Position numbers and translations under genes: made by a program. A stretch of DNA of 7,606 nt from Candidatus Heimdallarchaeota archaeon (GTDB lineage: Archaea > Asgardarchaeota > Heimdallarchaeia > Heimdallarchaeales > Kariarchaeaceae): positions 1 through 7,606 of the forward strand of contig JAAFKL010000416.1 of NCBI GenBank assembly GCA_021399405.1. The letters are read 5' to 3'. Below the pieces are notes generated by a model. It was not told the origin of the DNA and searched no databases. It worked only from the letters and a program-made list of their open reading frames with translations. Positions 121 through 7,348 of the stretch are shown piece by piece (positions within the stretch are counted from its first letter, which is position 1; each line of letters begins with the position of its first letter).

Positions 121-693
121 ATGTACCCTAACAAAATTGAGCAGCAAATTGTCTTTGAAGTCATGGCCTCATCCGGTGCATCAATTGAGGATCTGATTAA
201 ATGTGCATTGCAGGATTATGATGACACAAAAGGTATGCTTAGAATTTCAACCGTAAAGGGGAGACGTAAGGTCGTTCTTACAAAACGTGCTAGTAAAATA
301 ATGAATGAATATCTGGGAAATTATAGAACCCGATTATTAGGCACTACTAAATCAGATTTGTTATTTTTAAGTAGTCGCGGTGGAGAAATCAGACAACGAA
401 CACTTCAATCAGCCTTATCAAAAATAGCGTTTAATTTGGGTTATGACCCAATAACTCCTAGTACTATTATCAACTCAGTTGTTAGTTATTTATTACAAAA
501 TAATATTAATACAAAAACTATTATTAATTTGTTGGATATCCCTCCTAATAACTTACTCACGTTAATCAATTTATTACCTGAGCCTAAAAATGAAGAGGAG
601 ATGGAGCAAATTAATTTGTTAATAGTTGAATTCGATATAGTTTCTCCAGATTTTGGTAAAATCCAAGACCAACTTGATGATTCATGGATTTAA
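121..693 (+). CDS. Tyrosine recombinase-like protein, catalytic residues lost
   Basis: The 190-residue protein follows the layout of a XerC/XerD or phage-integrase catalytic domain. It has an SGASIEDL segment (18-25) where the family has TGLRxSEL, a beta-hairpin VKGRRKVVL (45-53), LLFLSSRGG (80-88), TPSTIINS (112-119) where TPHxLRHS is expected, and LLDIPPNN (137-144) where LLGHSS is expected. On this alignment the first catalytic Arg is Ser21, the HxxR box is Ser114/Ile117, the His/Trp is Ile140 and the tyrosine nucleophile falls at Ile149. Only the hairpin lysine remains. The N-terminal DNA-binding core domain of full integrases is absent, and an acidic tail (155-190) is added. The frame is intact and has a promoter-like element, so this may be a domesticated DNA-binding protein or a young pseudogene. 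Strand cleavage looks impossible. Family assignment rests on motif layout only. Confidence 0.6.
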   Translation: MYPNKIEQQIVFEVMASSGASIEDLIKCALQDYDDTKGMLRISTVKGRRKVVLTKRASKIMNEYLGNYRTRLLGTTKSDLLFLSSRGGEIRQRTLQSALSKIAFNLGYDPITPSTIINSVVSYLLQNNINTKTIINLLDIPPNNLLTLINLLPEPKNEEEMEQINLLIVEFDIVSPDFGKIQDQLDDSWI

Positions 694-1080
694 TATTGAG
701 CTGTCTACCATTAAAAGTATTTTCAAGAATTTATCTTAGGCACAGGAATCTAATTGGTAAAAATCAATCTAGATTATGTCTCATAAATCTGAAAACTCAA
801 TCTGCCTTCAAATCTATATTTGGAGTTGCAAACAACTTGATGTTTGGATAATTAAATCATACAACAAATGACAATGCGTTCTCTAAATCTTCAGATCTTC
901 TATTTAATCCTAATATTGGGTCACTATCTCTTTCTGAGTCTTCCTTCAACGTGAGTAAAGTTGGATTTATTTCACAATAAATATTATTTAATTTTTATTT
1001 GTAATTCTTCATATTCAATGTTAAGCTAACAATAGAAGTTTTATAATACCTAAATTTAACTTATTTCAGATTTAAATACC
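694..1080. other. Gene-poor spacer with a possible decayed minus-strand frame
   Basis: No convincing gene lies in these 387 bases. On the plus strand a 55-codon frame (684-851) overlaps the end of the integrase-like gene; its hydrophobic and Ser/Asn-rich product looks like non-coding read-through. On the minus strand one frame, read from about 990 down to 690, has a coding-like composition rich in Glu, Asp, Arg and Leu (for example DPILGLNRRSEDLENALSFV). It is broken by stops at about 857-859 and further downstream, and it has no ATG, as a decayed gene would. The right end holds the promoter of the aldolase gene. No RNA gene or extended repeat was seen. Confidence 0.4.
1039..1048 (+). promoter_or_regulatory. 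TATA-like element upstream of the aldolase unit
   Basis: The run TTTTATAATA lies 33 bases before the ATG at 1081, followed by other A/T-rich runs (TAAATTTA at 1051-1058 and TTTAAATA at 1071-1078). Any of the first two could serve a short-leader or leaderless transcript starting at 1081. The last is placed about 30 bases before an alternative in-frame ATG at 1108. No Shine-Dalgarno is visible before either ATG. Confidence 0.4.
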
Positions 1081-2070
1081 ATGCCTACTAAAAAGAAGCT
1101 ACAAGAAATGTCATCACAAACAGAAATTCATGATAGAAATCCTGGAATGCCGTTGGAGCTTGATTGGTTAAATGAAGTTCGTGTTAATAAAAGCGCAGTA
1201 GAGAGAAGAGCTCAAACTATCGGAAAAAGAAGATCCATTAAAAAAGAATGGCAAGCAGCTTGGTTATTGAAAGCAGTTTCATGTATCGATTTGACAACAT
1301 TAGCAGGTGATGATACACCAGGAAGGGTAAAACGATTATGTGCAAAAGCAAGGCAACCAGTTCGAAAAGATATTCTTAATTCATTTGAAATCAATAATTT
1401 GACTACTGGGGCCGTATGTGTATATCACAATAGGGTTGAAGAAGCAGTTTCCTTTTTGAAAGGAACTGGGATTCCTGTCGCTGCTGTATCTACTGGTTTT
1501 CCTGCTGGGCAGATCTCTTTGGAAGAAAAGATTAGGCAAATAAAACAATCTGTTTTAGCTGGAGCTCAAGAAATTGATATTGTCATTTCACGAGATCATG
1601 TATTGAAGGGGGATTGGGAATCCTTGTATTCTGAAGTTTCTGCCTTTCGGGAAGCTTGTAGTTCTTCACATATGAAAACAATACTTGCAACTGGTGAACT
1701 TGCTACTTTTAGGCAGGTTGCTAAATCCAGTTTAGTTTGTATGATGGCTGGAGCTGATTTTATCAAGACAAGTACTGGAAAAGAAACTGTAAATGCAACT
1801 TTGGAAGTTAGTTTAACTATGATACGTCAAATTAGAGAATATTATGATCGTACAGGCTATAAAATTGGTTTTAAACCAGCAGGGGGGATCAGTAAAGCTA
1901 AACAAACTCTAGCATGGCTTGCTTTAATGAAGGATGAATTAGGTAATGAATGGCTAGAACCAAATCTTTTCAGATTTGGAGCCAGTAGCTTATTAATGGA
2001 TATTGAAAGACAATTAGAACATAATCTGAGTAATCAATACTCTGCCGCTTATCGGCATCCAATGGCTTAG
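1081..2070 (+). CDS. deoC: Deoxyribose-phosphate aldolase, human DERA-like
   Basis: This cytosolic class I aldolase reversibly splits 2-deoxy-D-ribose-5-phosphate into glyceraldehyde-3-phosphate and acetaldehyde. The 329-residue protein has the Schiff-base lysine Lys229 in FIKTSTGKETVNAT, the second lysine Lys265 in FKPAGGI, the acid/base aspartate Asp166 in EIDIVI, and Cys113 in TGAVCVY. Its length and its N-terminal region (KKEWQAAWLLKAV at 54-66, IDLTTLAGDDT at 69-79) match from memory the long eukaryotic/DERA type rather than the roughly 220-260-residue bacterial DeoC. The C-terminus (AAYRHPMA) also resembles human DERA. The start is uncertain: the ATG at 1108 would begin nearer to where human DERA begins and has a TATA-like run about 30 bases upstream. 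The stop is 9 bases before the ALDH16-like gene, so the two are very probably co-transcribed and acetaldehyde is the likely shared metabolite. Confidence 0.95.
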   Translation: MPTKKKLQEMSSQTEIHDRNPGMPLELDWLNEVRVNKSAVERRAQTIGKRRSIKKEWQAAWLLKAVSCIDLTTLAGDDTPGRVKRLCAKARQPVRKDILNSFEINNLTTGAVCVYHNRVEEAVSFLKGTGIPVAAVSTGFPAGQISLEEKIRQIKQSVLAGAQEIDIVISRDHVLKGDWESLYSEVSAFREACSSSHMKTILATGELATFRQVAKSSLVCMMAGADFIKTSTGKETVNATLEVSLTMIRQIREYYDRTGYKIGFKPAGGISKAKQTLAWLALMKDELGNEWLEPNLFRFGASSLLMDIERQLEHNLSNQYSAAYRHPMA

Positions 2071-2074
2071 GTGA
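2069..2074 (+). promoter_or_regulatory. Ribosome binding site overlapping the aldolase stop
   Basis: AGGTGA sits five bases before the ATG of the dehydrogenase gene and overlaps the TAG stop of the aldolase gene. It is a good Shine-Dalgarno match and supports the start at 2080. The arrangement suggests translational coupling within one transcript, in contrast to the first gene of the unit, which has no such site. Confidence 0.7.
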
Positions 2075-2079
2075 ATTAA

Positions 2080-4476
2080 ATGAAAGTAAATGAAATATTT
2101 GAAAATATTGAGTATGGACCCGCACCAGAAACAAGTAAATTTGCTGAAGAATGGTTTGACAGTCATAATCGAAAATTCAAGCTCTATATCAATGGACAAT
2201 GGGTTGAACCTAAATCCAATAAATACTATGAAACTATTAATCCAGCAAACAAAGAAGTGATTGCACAATGTGCTGAAGCAAATAAAGAAGATGTTGACGA
2301 TGCCATCCGTGCCGCCAAAATAGCACAAGTGAAGTGGAAGAAATTAGGAGGCCATGGGAGAGCGAGGTACATTTATGCAATGGCACGTCAAATCCAGAAA
2401 AATTCTCGATTATTCGCAGTAGTTGAAACTATGGATAATGGGAAACCAATCCGTGAATCGAGAGATATTGATGTTCCATTAGCAGCAAGGCATCTTTATC
2501 ATCATGCAGGATGGGCACAATTAATGGATAAGGAATTTAAGGATTATGAGCCGTTAGGTGTTGTTGGAGGAATCGTACCCTGGAACTTTCCGTTGTTAAT
2601 TTTTATTTGGAAAATAGCACCAGCACTTGCCATGGGAAATACATTTGTAATTAAACCTGCAAAATTAACATCCCTATCGGTATTATTGTTTGCTGAAATA
2701 TGCCATAACATTGGATTACCACCTGGAGTTCTAAATATTACAACAGGATCTGGAAGTAAAACAGGTCAATTCATTACAAAACATCCAGATATTAGTAAAA
2801 TTACATTCACAGGATCAACAAGCGTTGGTCGAATACTTAGAAAAACTATCGCTGGAAGCGGTAAGAAAATCACATTGGAACTGGGTGGAAAATCCCCATA
2901 TATCGTCTTTGATGATGCGGATATGGATAGCGCAATTGAAGGCCTTGTAGATGCAATATGGTTCAATCAAGGGCAGGTATGTTGTGCAGGATCTCGACTT
3001 CTGGTACAAGAAAATATTGCAGAGAGATTTATCGAGAAATTAAAAATTAGAATGAAGCATTTGAGAATTGGAGACCCAATGGACAAAGCAATTGACATTG
3101 GTGCTGTCGTAGATAAAAATCAATATGATACTATAGACAGTTTTGTGAAAATCGGTGTTAAGGAAGGGGGTTCTAAATGGCAACCTGACTTGGCATGTCC
3201 CGATGATGGTTACTATTATTTACCAACGCTTTTTACAGATGTATCACCTGCAGACACTGTTGTTATAGAAGAAATATTCGGACCTGTTTTGGTAAGTATG
3301 AGTTTTCGTACACCAGCAGAAGCAATCGCATTAGCAAATAATAGTAGGTATGGGCTAGCAGCAAGTGTATGGACTGAAAATATTAATTTGGCCCTAGATG
3401 TTGCACCAGCATTGAAAGCAGGTGTTATATGGATTAATTGTACCAATATGTTTGATGGAGCAGCAGGATTTGGTGGATATCGAGAATCAGGATTTGGGAG
3501 AGAAGGAGGTATTGAAGGACTTTGGGACTTTATAAAACCTAAATGGGAGAAACAATTCAAAAGTGAACCAATATCACCTGTAAAACAGATTATTACAGAA
3601 AATTCCTCAAGTAGCAAAGACAGTATGTCCTTCATTGATAAAACCGCAAAAATGTACATTGGAGGGAATCAAGCGCGTCCTGATGGTGGTTATAGTATTA
3701 TTATCAATAATCCTTCTGGTAAAATTGTTGGAGAAGTTGGTCGAGGAAATAGAAAGGATATTAGAAATGCTGTAGAAGCTGCTCATGGATGTAAAAAATG
3801 GGAATCAACAACAGGACACAATCGAGCTCAAGTATTGTATTATATAGCAGAAAACTTAGACTTCAGGAAGAAAGAATTTGCAAAACGCATCCAAGAGATA
3901 ACTGGTGCCACCGAAAAGATTGCAAATAAGGAAGTAGATTTGTCCATTGATAGATTATATTATTATGCTTCACAAGCAGACAAATACGATGGAAGAGTAC
4001 ATCGAGTTCCACAACGAAATGTAACAATTGCTATGCCAGAACCGGTTGGCATTATGGGAATCGTATGCCCTGAGAACTATCCGTTGTTAGGATTTATATC
4101 CACGGTTATGCCCGCAGTTGCTATGGGAAACAGGGTAGTAGTTATCCCTTCAGAAAGGTATCCTCTTAGCGCAACAGATTTCTATCAGATTCTTGAAACA
4201 AGTGATTTACCTGGTGGAGCAATTAATATTGTAACAGGTCAACAAGAGGAGTTAATAGAAGTCTTATCAAATCATAATGATGTTGACGGTATTTGGTATT
4301 TTGGTTCGACGGATCTATCAGAAATGATTGAAATCAATGCATCAGAAAACATGAAACGTACGTGGTTAAATTTTGGAAAGTATCGTGATTGGTTTAATGA
4401 ACAACATGGTTACGGAGAAGAATTTTTACGCAAAGCTACAGAAGTCAAAAATATTTGGATTCCATATGGAGAATAG
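2080..4476 (+). CDS. ALDH16-like two-domain aldehyde dehydrogenase
   Basis: The 798-residue protein matches the ALDH16 layout from end to end. Residues about 1-490 form a complete aldehyde dehydrogenase: PWNFP with Asn169, IKPA with Lys192, GSTSVG (245-250), LELGG with the general base Glu267, GQVCCAG with the nucleophile Cys301, and EEIFGPV (397-403). A Ser-rich linker (about 505-518) leads to a second, shorter domain (about 524-798). That domain keeps the cofactor-fold outline (CPENYP, WYFGSTD) but has no ELGG glutamate and no catalytic-cysteine region, as in the ALDH16 family. The closing IWIPYGE resembles the end of human ALDH16A1. Unlike the mammalian protein, whose first domain lacks the cysteine, this one should be active. 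Being downstream of the aldolase, it probably oxidises acetaldehyde to acetate with NAD(P); true substrate and cofactor are inferred. Confidence 0.93.
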   Translation: MKVNEIFENIEYGPAPETSKFAEEWFDSHNRKFKLYINGQWVEPKSNKYYETINPANKEVIAQCAEANKEDVDDAIRAAKIAQVKWKKLGGHGRARYIYAMARQIQKNSRLFAVVETMDNGKPIRESRDIDVPLAARHLYHHAGWAQLMDKEFKDYEPLGVVGGIVPWNFPLLIFIWKIAPALAMGNTFVIKPAKLTSLSVLLFAEICHNIGLPPGVLNITTGSGSKTGQFITKHPDISKITFTGSTSVGRILRKTIAGSGKKITLELGGKSPYIVFDDADMDSAIEGLVDAIWFNQGQVCCAGSRLLVQENIAERFIEKLKIRMKHLRIGDPMDKAIDIGAVVDKNQYDTIDSFVKIGVKEGGSKWQPDLACPDDGYYYLPTLFTDVSPADTVVIEEIFGPVLVSMSFRTPAEAIALANNSRYGLAASVWTENINLALDVAPALKAGVIWINCTNMFDGAAGFGGYRESGFGREGGIEGLWDFIKPKWEKQFKSEPISPVKQIITENSSSSKDSMSFIDKTAKMYIGGNQARPDGGYSIIINNPSGKIVGEVGRGNRKDIRNAVEAAHGCKKWESTTGHNRAQVLYYIAENLDFRKKEFAKRIQEITGATEKIANKEVDLSIDRLYYYASQADKYDGRVHRVPQRNVTIAMPEPVGIMGIVCPENYPLLGFISTVMPAVAMGNRVVVIPSERYPLSATDFYQILETSDLPGGAINIVTGQQEELIEVLSNHNDVDGIWYFGSTDLSEMIEINASENMKRTWLNFGKYRDWFNEQHGYGEEFLRKATEVKNIWIPYGE

Positions 4477-4495: not shown

Positions 4496-4822
4496 TTAAT
4501 TAATTTCAGCTTCAATTGCATTTGGAATAATAAATAATAGTGTATCCATAATACCTTGATAAAATTCGATTTCATTTAACTTCATAGTAACAGAAACCTC
4601 TTGAAATTCATCTTGTGTTGCAACTCTATAATAAACACGCCTCATATCGAACAAATTCGGAACCCTAACAATAATACCTTTCTCTCTGAGTCGACGTAAT
4701 GCATATTTAATATCTTTTTTCTCAAAATGAGGTAATGCTGTATTAATTTGGTTCGGGGTCAAAGATTCTTGATGTTTGAAAAGTTCAAGGATCTCATTGG
4801 TTGGTTTTGGGAGTTTTAGCAT
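4496..4822 (-). CDS. Small winged-helix DNA-binding protein
   Basis: The 108-residue protein has the pattern of a single winged helix-turn-helix domain: helix 1 at about 7-17 (PTNEILELFKH), helix 2 at about 22-30 (TPNQINTAL), a basic recognition helix at about 34-48 (EKKDIKYALRRLREKG), and a beta wing at about 50-67 (IIVRVPNLFDMRRVYYRV). A C-terminal helix (about 81-100) may mediate dimerisation. The specific family (MarR-like, ArsR-like or other) cannot be assigned by eye. The gene is convergent with the dehydrogenase gene (19 bases between stops) and divergent from RuBisCO, sharing a 316-base upstream region with repeats. A role as local regulator of RuBisCO, itself or the deoxyribose unit is inferred from position only. 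The start is supported by a Shine-Dalgarno. Confidence 0.8.
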   Translation of the reverse strand: MLKLPKPTNEILELFKHQESLTPNQINTALPHFEKKDIKYALRRLREKGIIVRVPNLFDMRRVYYRVATQDEFQEVSVTMKLNEIEFYQGIMDTLLFIIPNAIEAEIN

Positions 4823-5138: not shown

Positions 5139-6452
5139 ATGTCGTATCAAGACAAGGAATTTTTTCAGCCTGATTTTAATCCGGATCCAGATGACAATGT
5201 AATTGTCACTTTTGACGTCCATACTACCCCTGATAAAATGGACCGTGTATACAGAGAAATCCCAGCTGAATCAAGCATTGGGACCTGGCAGAAAGTTGCT
5301 GGGATGACCGATGATATTCTAAAGAAGCTATCAGCCAAAACTTTTCATGTTGACAAAATTAACGATAGTTACTCAAAAATAAAAGTAGCTTATCCACTTG
5401 AACTATTTGAACCGAATAATGTGCCACAAATGTTATCATTATTTGCTGGGAATGTATTTGGCATGAATACAGTCCCAAATTTAAGAGTTGAAAGTGTCGA
5501 GCTTCCTAATGAGCTCATCAACAGCTTTCCTGGACCCGAATTTGGACCACAAGGAATATATAAAATTATTGGAATCAATGAAGGGCCAATTCTTGGTACA
5601 ATTGTAAAACCGAAACTAGGATCTCCACCCGCAGTACATGCAAAAACTACATATGACAGTTGGAAAGGCTCTGATGAAGAAGGTGGAATAACATGGGTCA
5701 AAGATGATGAACCGCAAACAAATCAAGATTTCTGTCCATTTGAAGACAGAATAAGTAGAGTACTTGAGTATGCGGATCAAATTAAATCAGAACAAGGTAG
5801 ACAAGTAATTTATGCTTGTAATATTACAGGTCCAATTGATACTATGCTTAAGAGGGCAGAATATGTAGTAGATCATGGCGGAAAATGTTTAATGATTGAC
5901 GTTATCACAACTGGTTTTTCTGCTGTTCAATATATTCGAGAACAAAATTTTGGATTACCCATTCATGCACATAGAGCAATGCATGGAGCAATTACGAAGC
6001 ATCATCAGCATGGAATTCACATGGAAGTTTTAGCAGCAATGTTTCGACTTGTTGGTGTGGATGGAATCCACACAGGAACAATATTCGGTAAGATGGGATA
6101 TGGTAAACTAGAAGAGGATAGGGATGAAGTGATGAGAAGTAACAATGTGCTACTAAGTACCGATTTTGGGAAATTAAAACAGGTTATTCCTATTGCATCT
6201 GGTGGTGTTGGAGTAAAGAATGTTGGCAAAATCATCAACGCTTTGAAACCTCATGTAGTCATCACTGCAGGAGGAGGAGTACATGGCCACCCAGATGGAT
6301 CTGCTGCTGGTGCAACCTCAATGATGCAAGCTAAAGAAGCAGCACTACAAGGGGTTATTGAAGAAGATGACTTGGTAAAGTGGGCACACGAAAACGATAA
6401 GAAAGAATTATCTCTTGCATTAGGTAATGTTGGAGAAGGATATTCGAGATAA
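5139..6452 (+). CDS. rbcL: RuBisCO large subunit, archaeal form III-like
   Basis: The 437-residue enzyme should carboxylate ribulose-1,5-bisphosphate to two 3-phosphoglycerates. In archaea, form III usually works in AMP-ribose salvage rather than a Calvin cycle. By alignment from memory to spinach numbering, the catalytic set is complete: Glu44 (E60) in AESSIGTW, Asn105 (N123) in GNVFG, Lys157 and Lys159 (K175, K177) in TIVKPKLG, the carbamylated Lys188 with Asp190 and Glu191 (K201, D203, E204) in VKDDE, His278/Arg279/His282 in HAHRAMH, His311 (H327) in IHTGT, Ser354 in ASGG, and Gly378-Gly380. AESSIGTW and SFPGPEFG point to form III rather than the form IV RuBisCO-like proteins. Two oddities are about five extra residues (SDEEG, 178-182) before the carbamylated lysine and a lengthened loop 6 with two Gly-Lys motifs (317-323). 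No small-subunit or activase gene is nearby. Confidence 0.94.
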   Translation: MSYQDKEFFQPDFNPDPDDNVIVTFDVHTTPDKMDRVYREIPAESSIGTWQKVAGMTDDILKKLSAKTFHVDKINDSYSKIKVAYPLELFEPNNVPQMLSLFAGNVFGMNTVPNLRVESVELPNELINSFPGPEFGPQGIYKIIGINEGPILGTIVKPKLGSPPAVHAKTTYDSWKGSDEEGGITWVKDDEPQTNQDFCPFEDRISRVLEYADQIKSEQGRQVIYACNITGPIDTMLKRAEYVVDHGGKCLMIDVITTGFSAVQYIREQNFGLPIHAHRAMHGAITKHHQHGIHMEVLAAMFRLVGVDGIHTGTIFGKMGYGKLEEDRDEVMRSNNVLLSTDFGKLKQVIPIASGGVGVKNVGKIINALKPHVVITAGGGVHGHPDGSAAGATSMMQAKEAALQGVIEEDDLVKWAHENDKKELSLALGNVGEGYSR

Positions 6453-7154
6453 TTAGACACTACCTATATAGAAACTTTCAATCGGAGGATCTATAAAATC
6501 AAAGAATTTTGACAATCCAACATAAGAATCATACAACGATCGTCTTTTTAAAAATTTAAATTCCACCAATCCCGGTGTAATACGAGGAATAGGCAATTCA
6601 TCATAATTTGAGTTTGGTAGTAATTTACCTTCTTTGTAGGGTAAATATCCTGGTCCCTCTAATTTGGTGATATCATTAGTATTTCTCACTTCCTCCCTTG
6701 CTTGGATTTCAAAGAAACGAGCAGGAGAATCAGAAGAACCATTAATCAAAATTGTTTCATATACTGGTGAAACAATTGTATACTCATATGGTTGTAGTGT
6801 AAAATAAATAAAATCAGTTATCTGACCTGGTGTTTCCCACCTTTGTAAAATTACTCTGCAAGATCGATCAAGTGATTGAATAATTCTTCCGAATTTGAAG
6901 CCTCTTTTTTTATCTGGGCTGGATTGACCTAGCCAAATTTCGTTCAGTTTATTTTTATCTGAAGGAGGAAGAATTAACATATTGAATCGTGAATTAGGAT
7001 GAAGATGTCTATGTTCTGGTAACACTAAATTATCATAGATGACACCATTATCTGGACTTAATGGACGGGGGTCACGAATAAAATCTCCACGAAGAAATAT
7101 CGGAGTACCATCAGTATGCCAATCTAGAGGTAGACCAAGAGGTAATTTCTCCAT
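6453..7154 (-). CDS. Cupin glucose-6-phosphate isomerase-like protein lacking metal ligands
   Basis: The 233-residue protein seems related to archaeal cupin-type phosphoglucose isomerase (cPGI). RFNMLILPP (56-64) fits the strand before the metal site, and SPVYETILINGSSDSP (129-144) lines up with the family pattern PPxYxHxTINxGDEP. The tail (PNSNY, then YDSYVGLSKFFDF) resembles C-termini that I associate with such proteins. The metal-binding GHxH appears as GQSS (76-79) and the later histidine as Thr, so metal-dependent isomerisation is doubtful. A HRHLH cluster (48-52) lies elsewhere and is not the usual site. The ATG at 7154 is chosen; an in-frame TTG at 7202 would add 16 hydrophobic residues and seems less likely. 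Its stop abuts the RuBisCO stop with no base between. A sugar-phosphate binding, regulatory or other cupin role is possible. Family assignment is moderate. Confidence 0.55.
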   Translation of the reverse strand: MEKLPLGLPLDWHTDGTPIFLRGDFIRDPRPLSPDNGVIYDNLVLPEHRHLHPNSRFNMLILPPSDKNKLNEIWLGQSSPDKKRGFKFGRIIQSLDRSCRVILQRWETPGQITDFIYFTLQPYEYTIVSPVYETILINGSSDSPARFFEIQAREEVRNTNDITKLEGPGYLPYKEGKLLPNSNYDELPIPRITPGLVEFKFLKRRSLYDSYVGLSKFFDFIDPPIESFYIGSV

Positions 7155-7348
7155 AAATAAATAAATTTTATTCAATAAAAAAACAGTAGATATGATTTGC
7201 AAGATTAAAGTAGAAATTTTAAGATAAAAGATTAATTGATCTCATGATTCTGCCATGTCTCAAAAAAGTTAACTTTCCAAAATTGATATAATTTCACTTA
7301 TAATCCACTGTTGGAATAGAGTTTATATTAGATGAATGTGTTGATAAA

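What the first reader, a model, noticed from the sequence alone, without database searches (positions are those of the whole stretch)
1081..4476. Two-gene deoxyribose unit: human-like DERA plus ALDH16 in an apparent archaeon
The sequence shows a long DERA-type aldolase and a full-length ALDH16-type dehydrogenase 9 bases apart with a coupled ribosome binding site. The aldolase product acetaldehyde is a natural substrate for an aldehyde dehydrogenase. As I recall, ALDH16 has been described from bacteria, protists and animals but not archaea. The pair could bear on the origin of both eukaryotic genes, or be a bacterial acquisition.
Basis: partly seen in the sequence, partly recalled or inferred. 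Interest (0 to 1): 0.72.

Follow-up and report, generated by a model that had tools for sequence, protein, structure and literature searches.

The report
Paired deoxyribose aldolase and aldehyde dehydrogenase
An Asgard archaeon carries two neighbouring genes that probably break down the sugar of DNA and burn off the toxic acetaldehyde it releases; the same two genes travel together in many bacteria, which suggests a job for a little-understood enzyme family whose human member is inactive.

Summary
A 329-aa DERA (1081-2070) and a full-length 798-aa ALDH16 (2080-4476) lie nine bases apart, catalytic residues intact. The nearest named relatives are Heimdallarchaeota MAGs, so the window is very probably Asgard. 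The pair is not an archaeal peculiarity: ALDH16 follows DERA in 78 of 80 named bacterial loci; DERA precedes ALDH16 in 26 of 27 Pseudomonadota, 20 of 20 Bacteroidota and 11 of 27 Chloroflexota ALDH16 loci. In 294 genomes of three phyla 117 have both genes, 171 neither, 6 only one. The likeliest reading is a two-step unit: deoxyribose-5-phosphate to glyceraldehyde-3-phosphate plus acetaldehyde, then acetaldehyde to acetate, probably acquired by Heimdallarchaeia from bacteria. Vertebrate DERA groups with Chloroflexota rows, not with the Asgard group (AU p 0.080: disfavoured, not rejected), so an Asgard origin of the eukaryotic gene gets little support; eukaryotic ALDH16 was not tested. Most useful is the near-obligate DERA-ALDH16 partnership, which I did not find described in the held library; it makes the ancestral role of ALDH16 testable.

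The parts
1041..1048 (+). TTATAATA, possible archaeal TATA box 33 nt before the DERA start
   Evidence: read by eye; not tested; no sigma-70-type site between 900 and the DERA start
1081..2070 (+). DERA (deoxyribose-5-phosphate aldolase), 329 aa; D166, K229 and K265 in the catalytic motifs
   Evidence: TIGR00126 143.7 bits over the 117.3 cut-off; PF01791; motif positions; D166, K229, K265 invariant in the 16-row alignment
2069..2074 (+). AGGTGA, ribosome-binding-site-like, overlapping the DERA stop codon, 5 nt before the ALDH16 start
   Evidence: read by eye
2080..4476 (+). ALDH16, 798 aa: catalytic ALDH half (N169, E267, C301 present) plus a C-terminal second ALDH-like half
   Evidence: full-length match to 6mvr, 912.8 bits; two Aldedh stretches; motif positions; N169, E267, C301 invariant in 18 rows
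4496..4822 (-). 108-aa protein, possibly a winged-helix regulator, between ALDH16 and RuBisCO
   Evidence: only sub-threshold Pfam matches (Penicillinase_R E 0.002, HxlR E 0.014) and no useful solved-structure match; part of the setting, not of the unit
5139..6452 (+). form III-like RuBisCO large subunit, 437 aa, active-site motifs present
   Evidence: TIGR03326 411.8 bits, below its 497.45 cut-off; best solved structure 2cwx; motifs; neighbour, not in one operon with the pair

Best explanation
A two-gene deoxyribose-breakdown unit of a Heimdallarchaeia archaeon. DERA cleaves 2-deoxyribose-5-phosphate (from salvaged DNA nucleosides) to glyceraldehyde-3-phosphate and acetaldehyde. The co-translated ALDH16 oxidises the acetaldehyde to acetate with NAD(P)+, which pulls the reversible aldolase reaction forward and removes a toxic aldehyde. 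The unit is the same one that many bacteria carry; an ancestor of these Heimdallarchaeia probably acquired it from bacteria as a pair. Shown here: gene identities, catalytic residues, adjacency, the near-obligate partnership in several bacterial phyla, and one Asgard DERA group within a bacterial radiation. Inferred: co-translation, substrate, cofactor, direction of flux, and the direction of transfer.
For: DERA and ALDH16 identity and intact residues. Linkage from DERA: ALDH16 downstream on the same strand within 1 kb in 78 of 80 named loci; the two misses are short contigs with about 930 and 31 bases downstream. Linkage from ALDH16: DERA upstream in 26 of 27 Pseudomonadota (the miss has 163 bases of upstream contig), 20 of 20 Bacteroidota, 11 of 27 Chloroflexota; 8 more of these Chloroflexota have the two 1.5-5.2 kb apart on one strand of one contig. 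Co-occurrence: of 294 genomes in three phyla, 117 both, 3 DERA only, 3 ALDH16 only, 171 neither. Of the 28 largest flank gene families printed, no other sense-strand family of known class reaches beyond Alphaproteobacteria (the set is mostly Alphaproteobacteria). E. coli-type deoA/deoB/deoD are near in only 4/3/3 of 80. DERA yields acetaldehyde and glyceraldehyde-3-phosphate (PMC4247479, passages). One Asgard DERA group among bacterial branches.
Against: No activity is shown. The best curated ALDH models are for other aldehydes (betaine aldehyde, aminobutyraldehyde), and none of the 25 shown is over its cut-off, so substrate specificity rests on context alone. No nucleoside phosphorylase, phosphopentomutase or deoxyribokinase was recognised in the window. 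In Chloroflexota 16 of 27 ALDH16 loci show no DERA within the flank. Branches at the base of the DERA ingroup are unresolved, the Asgard grouping has only 82/84 support and the bootstrap had not settled; the ALDH16 tree does not separate the rows taken as Asgard cleanly from eight others, one named Verrucomicrobia (71/86).
Confidence: 0.72

Rival explanations
1. ALDH16 acts on the other aldolase product or on a different aldehyde: it oxidises glyceraldehyde-3-phosphate to 3-phosphoglycerate (a GAPN-like step feeding the same pool as the neighbouring RuBisCO), or is a general aldehyde scavenger.
For: ALDH substrate ranges are broad (general knowledge); the neighbouring form III-like RuBisCO would make 3-phosphoglycerate; the archaeal GAPDH model NF040869 matches, though far below its cut-off (297.5 against 780 bits).
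Against: The partnership with DERA is seen without RuBisCO in the fetched flanks (RuBisCO in 0 of 80 named loci); glyceraldehyde-3-phosphate is handled by central metabolism anyway (general knowledge); the archaeal GAPN model scores much worse than the betaine-aldehyde model (297.5 against 551.7 bits).
Confidence: 0.15
2. The pair was passed from (proto-)Asgard archaea to eukaryotes, so it bears on the origin of human DERA and ALDH16A1.
For: Vertebrates have relatives of both (DERA; ALDH16A1: PMC10650815); the AU test does not reject Asgard and vertebrate DERA as one clade (p 0.080).
Against: Vertebrate DERA is grouped with Chloroflexota L121/L135 (99/94) and with these plus L002 and the unnamed P0049 (96/92), the constrained tree is 45.6 log units worse, and the best bacterial identity is 67% against 57% for the window. 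Only vertebrates were sampled; eukaryotic ALDH16 was not.
Confidence: 0.06
3. The contig is bacterial (a binning or assembly error), and the archaeal label is wrong.
For: The pair is common in bacteria; no whole genome is held for the window.
Against: Nearest named proteins are Heimdallarchaeota, and Kariarchaeaceae come next, from several records, one on an 80,615-base and one (ALDH16 P0127) on a 172,515-base longest contig; a form III-like RuBisCO lies next door. Weak: no sigma-70-like site lies between 900 and the DERA start (three matches inside DERA, fewer than the 5.1 expected by chance).
Confidence: 0.05
4. The two genes were acquired separately, or brought side by side in the archaea independently, rather than as a unit.
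For: The two trees are not fully congruent: P0131 and P0135 fall in the same starred clade as Asgard ALDH16, while the DERAs with the same longest-contig lengths (P0075, P0008) fall outside the Asgard DERA group.
Against: Same order and strand in bacteria; two DERA/ALDH16 protein pairs, all four named Kariarchaeaceae, share longest-contig lengths (P0009/P0123 9,643; P0099/P0147 21,157), which suggests the genes share a contig there too (inference).
Confidence: 0.12

Closest known systems
Deoxyribose-5-phosphate aldolase DeoC/DERA, long form (vertebrate DERA; E. coli deoC as the short form)
   Same: Class I aldolase with the Schiff-base lysine motif, over the TIGR00126 cut-off; 57% identical to vertebrate DERA P0242
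   Different: 70 residues longer than E. coli DeoC (259 aa); paired with ALDH16, not with deoA-deoB-deoD as in the E. coli deo operon
ALDH16 (Loktanella LsALDH16, PDB 6mvr; human ALDH16A1)
   Same: Same two-part length and a 912.8-bit full-length match to 6mvr; catalytic Cys, Glu and Asn present
   Different: In an archaeon and next to DERA; human ALDH16A1 lacks the catalytic residues and is described as a pseudoenzyme (PMC10650815, passages read)
SPU (sugar phosphate utilizing) bacterial microcompartment loci
   Same: Also pair a DeoC-type aldolase with an aldehyde dehydrogenase for deoxyribose-phosphate degradation (PMC4207490, passages read)
   Different: [quoted passage not shown] no shell-protein domain was found in the window and its ALDH is an ALDH16
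Archaeal form III RuBisCO / AMP pathway
   Same: The next long gene in the window is a form III-like RuBisCO; Asgard RuBisCOs of type III or IV have been read as nucleoside salvage enzymes (PMC6646929, passages read)
   Different: Would handle the ribose branch, the DERA-ALDH16 pair the deoxyribose branch; not in one operon

Membership tests
DERA (DeoC) | Score over the curated equivalog cut-off | tested here: met
   TIGR00126 143.7 against 117.3 bits
DERA (DeoC) | Catalytic Lys (Schiff base), Asp and second Lys (E. coli K167, D102, K201; numbering recalled) | tested here: met
   K229, D166, K265 in DFIKTSTGK, EIDIVIS, GFKPAGGI; motifs aligned to 5eky; invariant in 16 rows
DERA (DeoC) | Cleavage of deoxyribose-5-phosphate | not testable with these tools
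   needs an assay
ALDH16 | Catalytic ALDH domain plus C-terminal second ALDH-like part, about 770-800 aa, homologous over full length | tested here: met
   residues 1-797 align to 2-766 of 6mvr; two Aldedh stretches
ALDH16 | Catalytic Cys, Glu and Asn present (active, non-human type) | tested here: met
   C301 aligns with the residue changed in 6mvu; E267 and N169 in LELGGK and PWNFP
ALDH16 | Dimer with trans-hierarchical similarity to ALDH tetramers | not testable with these tools
   described for LsALDH16 in PMC8160307 (passages)
Form III RuBisCO | Score over the curated cut-off | tested here: not met
   TIGR03326 411.8 against 497.45 bits; hence 'form III-like'
Form III RuBisCO | Active-site residues (carbamylated Lys, loop-6 Lys and others; assignments recalled) | tested here: met
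   WVKDDE at 186, IHTGTIFGKMG at 310, HAHRAMH at 276, ASGGV at 353
SPU bacterial microcompartment | Shell-protein genes in the locus | tested here: not met
   no BMC domain among the seven window proteins scanned; only 7.6 kb seen

The most novel reading that the evidence does not exclude
ALDH16 as a family evolved as the dedicated partner of long-form DERA. The two enzymes form a complex that channels acetaldehyde, with the C-terminal pseudo-half as the docking or oligomerising part. Human ALDH16A1, a pseudoenzyme linked to gout, would then be the relic of a nucleoside-breakdown partner that may still bind or regulate DERA.
Probability: 0.15. Interest if true: 0.75.

Novelty: new variant of a known kind. 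Interest (0 to 1): 0.5.

Why it matters
Human ALDH16A1 is listed with unknown substrate, is inactive, and is linked to gout (PMC10650815, passages). The near-obligate partnership of ALDH16 with DERA in several bacterial phyla, shared by the window's archaeon, names a likely ancestral substrate, acetaldehyde from deoxyribose-5-phosphate, and a partner protein; both can be tested directly. For the archaeal question it shows a bacterial-type deoxyribose unit close to a RuBisCO gene in a probable Heimdallarchaeia genome, and it warns against reading a human-like DERA in an Asgard genome as an ancestor of ours.

Tried and rejected
The viral-contig scan with the window DERA found nothing. Contig-length matches between searches are used as a hint only. 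The four loci of the G007 draw come from three genomes, two of them with the same match from one genome.

Considered and dropped: the pair as an extension of the classical deo operon (E. coli-type deoA, deoB, deoD near in only 4, 3 and 3 of 80 loci; other types of nucleoside enzymes were not sought); the RuBisCO as part of the same operon (662 bases away with an opposite-strand ORF between); a bacterial sigma-70 promoter (none between 900 and the start). A plasmid search with the RuBisCO gave only matches under 60% identity and was not used further.

Results against my reading: the AU test did not reject Asgard plus vertebrate DERA (p 0.080), and the careful DERA tree's bootstrap had not settled. 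The 'Asgard' row sets were named after seeing the FastTree trees and include unnamed proteins: six rows bear Asgard names, plus the window and eight unnamed rows (the label 'Asgard17' holds 15 rows); three rows bear Asgard names, plus the window and nine others. P0049, put with the Chloroflexota rows, is unnamed. E-value limits for counting presence (1e-100 for DERA; for ALDH16 1e-230 in Chloroflexota, 1e-150 in SAR324, and in Gemmatimonadota a cut in the gap between 1.4e-245 and 1.1e-204, which drops 11 of 83 genomes with weaker ALDH matches) were partly chosen after seeing the scores. Fisher p-values ignore relatedness. Of the six single-gene genomes, three have the lone gene near a contig end or beside a cut-off partner (G189, G616, G338); the other three (G180, G621, G635) were not explained. 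In one search my ORF filter recovered ALDH16 in 63 and DERA in 47 of 72 loci, and only the 28 largest families were printed; three of these others hold a locus that is not labelled Alphaproteobacteria (one 9-locus antisense family, and families of 7 and 4 loci with one locus of unlabelled class each).

Literature: one search listed three papers, passages of all three read; six and two, of which PMC4207490 was opened for passages; one search showed 10 of 83 papers and none of the ten holds ALDH16A1, 19 and 50 also gave no paper on an Asgard DERA. The main ALDH16 structure paper is not held.
Full report
WHAT IS THERE. Protein 1 is DERA: TIGR00126 143.7 bits, over its cut-off of 117.3, PF01791, and D166, K229 and K265 in the three catalytic motifs. 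Protein 2 is a full-length ALDH16: residues 1-797 align to the solved structure 6mvr with 912.8 bits, more than twice the score of any other ALDH listed apart from its own mutant 6mvu (that 6mvr is Loktanella ALDH16 is recalled). Its catalytic Cys (C301, aligned with the residue changed in 6mvu), Glu (E267) and Asn (N169) are present and invariant in an 18-row alignment, unlike human ALDH16A1, which lacks the catalytic triad (PMC10650815, passages).

WHOSE GENOME. No whole genome is held for the window. The best named DERAs are Heimdallarchaeota archaeon (P0003, 90%) and Heimdallarchaeota archaeon LC_2 (P0004, 91%); Kariarchaeaceae follow at 71-72%, with some bacteria at about 70%. For ALDH16 the best named neighbours are Kariarchaeaceae (P0123, 72%) and Heimdallarchaeota (P0127, 72%). 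Two DERA/ALDH16 protein pairs, all four named Kariarchaeaceae, have equal longest-contig lengths (9,643; 21,157), which suggests, but does not prove, that the genes share a contig there too. The next long gene in the window is a form III-like RuBisCO (411.8 bits against a cut-off of 497.45) with its active-site motifs. I take the window as Heimdallarchaeia with high confidence; the family was not determined.

THE PAIR IS A WIDESPREAD BACTERIAL UNIT. ALDH16 lies downstream on the same strand within 1 kb in 78 of 80; the two exceptions are short contigs. Presence of the near type (E 1e-100) varies: 71 of 121 Gemmatimonadota, 20 of 52 SAR324, 29 of 121 Chloroflexota, 3 of 112 and 3 of 119 in the last two draws. 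Starting from ALDH16 (27 of 299 Pseudomonadota, 27 of 121 Chloroflexota and 20 of 296 Bacteroidota genomes), DERA lies upstream in 26 of 27, 11 of 27 and 20 of 20; 16 of the 20 Bacteroidota have the more distant DERA. Eight further Chloroflexota have the two genes 1.5-5.2 kb apart on one strand and contig; in the other eight they are on different contigs or far apart. Even where apart they occur together: of 294 genomes in three phyla, 117 have both, 3 DERA only, 3 ALDH16 only, 171 neither (Chloroflexota 27/2/0/92, Gemmatimonadota 71/0/1/49, SAR324 phylum 19/1/2/30; thresholds partly post hoc, relatedness not corrected). Among 932 ORFs around 72 named loci longer than 10 kb, the 28 largest families were printed; DERA and ALDH16 are the only two spread over several classes, one 9-locus antisense family touches two other classes, and the rest are Alphaproteobacterial bar two with one locus of unlabelled class (the set is mostly Alphaproteobacteria, so this is weak for other phyla). 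E. coli-type deoA, deoB and deoD are near in 4, 3 and 3 of 80.

MECHANISM. [quoted passage not shown] A catalytically intact aldehyde dehydrogenase that is a near-obligate partner of DERA most likely oxidises that acetaldehyde to acetate. This would make the reversible aldol step run forward and remove a toxic product. Shown: the partnership and the residues. Inferred: substrate, cofactor and direction. The known analogue is the SPU microcompartment locus, which pairs a DeoC-type aldolase with another AldDH (PMC4207490, passages); no shell domain was found in the window. The neighbouring RuBisCO could serve the ribose branch of nucleoside breakdown, as proposed for Asgard RuBisCOs (PMC6646929, passages), but it is separated by 662 bases and an opposite-strand ORF and is not part of the unit.

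ORIGIN. In a FastTree of 141 DERAs all eight Asgard-named rows fall in one 17-row group (99), inside a large bacterial radiation. A careful mixture-model tree of 85 rows keeps that group (82/84; bootstrap not settled) and places four vertebrate rows with Chloroflexota L121 and L135 (99/94), then L002 and the unnamed P0049 (96/92). Forcing Asgard and vertebrate rows together costs 45.6 log-likelihood units, but the AU p is 0.080, so this is disfavoured and not rejected. By identity the vertebrate protein is nearer to Chloroflexota L073 (67%) than to the window (57%). The ALDH16 tree places the window in a starred 21-row clade (100/99) of 13 rows that I took as Asgard (three bear Asgard names) and eight others, one named Verrucomicrobia; the split between the two sets has only 71/86. 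The simplest account is an old transfer of the pair from bacteria into an ancestor of the Heimdallarchaeota and Kariarchaeaceae genomes named here, perhaps with later exchange. Eukaryotic ALDH16 was not sampled and eukaryotic DERA only from vertebrates.

NOVELTY. In the held library I found no paper that ties ALDH16 to archaea (passages of the three listed papers read), to deoxyribose (two papers listed, by title unrelated, not opened) or to DERA (six listed, 10 of 83 shown). The main ALDH16 structure paper is not held and subscription journals are missing, so priority cannot be claimed. Asgard proteins of both families are already in public databases under generic names. What is new here is the strength and breadth of the DERA-ALDH16 partnership and its presence in Heimdallarchaeia.

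Noticed in passing
L251-L266 (Bacteroidota genomes): ALDH16 is split into two adjacent genes in 16 of 20 ALDH16-positive Bacteroidota genomes: a 489-524-aa ALDH and a 287-295-aa C-terminal half, with DERA upstream; it is fused in 27 of 27 Pseudomonadota and 27 of 27 Chloroflexota loci. The second half can evidently be its own protein.
   Followed up: partly
window 121-693 (+): A 190-aa tyrosine-recombinase-like protein (PF00589, 43.2 bits) that by eye lacks the usual HxxR motif and the N-terminal part (motif recalled); perhaps a degenerate XerC/D relative.
   Followed up: no
window 5139-6452 (+): Form III-like RuBisCO with its active-site motifs but below the TIGR03326 cut-off, so possibly a divergent Asgard type.
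   Followed up: partly
window 6453-7202 (-): A 234-249-aa protein without any Pfam or NCBIfam match, convergent with the RuBisCO gene.
   Followed up: no
Chloroflexota genomes G145, G177, G182, G186, G191, G195, G219, G235: DERA and ALDH16 lie 1.5-5.2 kb apart on one strand of one contig; what lies between them was not looked at. It may be the pair opened by insertions.
   Followed up: no
DERA tree: Vertebrate DERA groups with Chloroflexota DERA (99/94 with L121 and L135): a possible lead on the bacterial source of the animal gene.
   Followed up: partly
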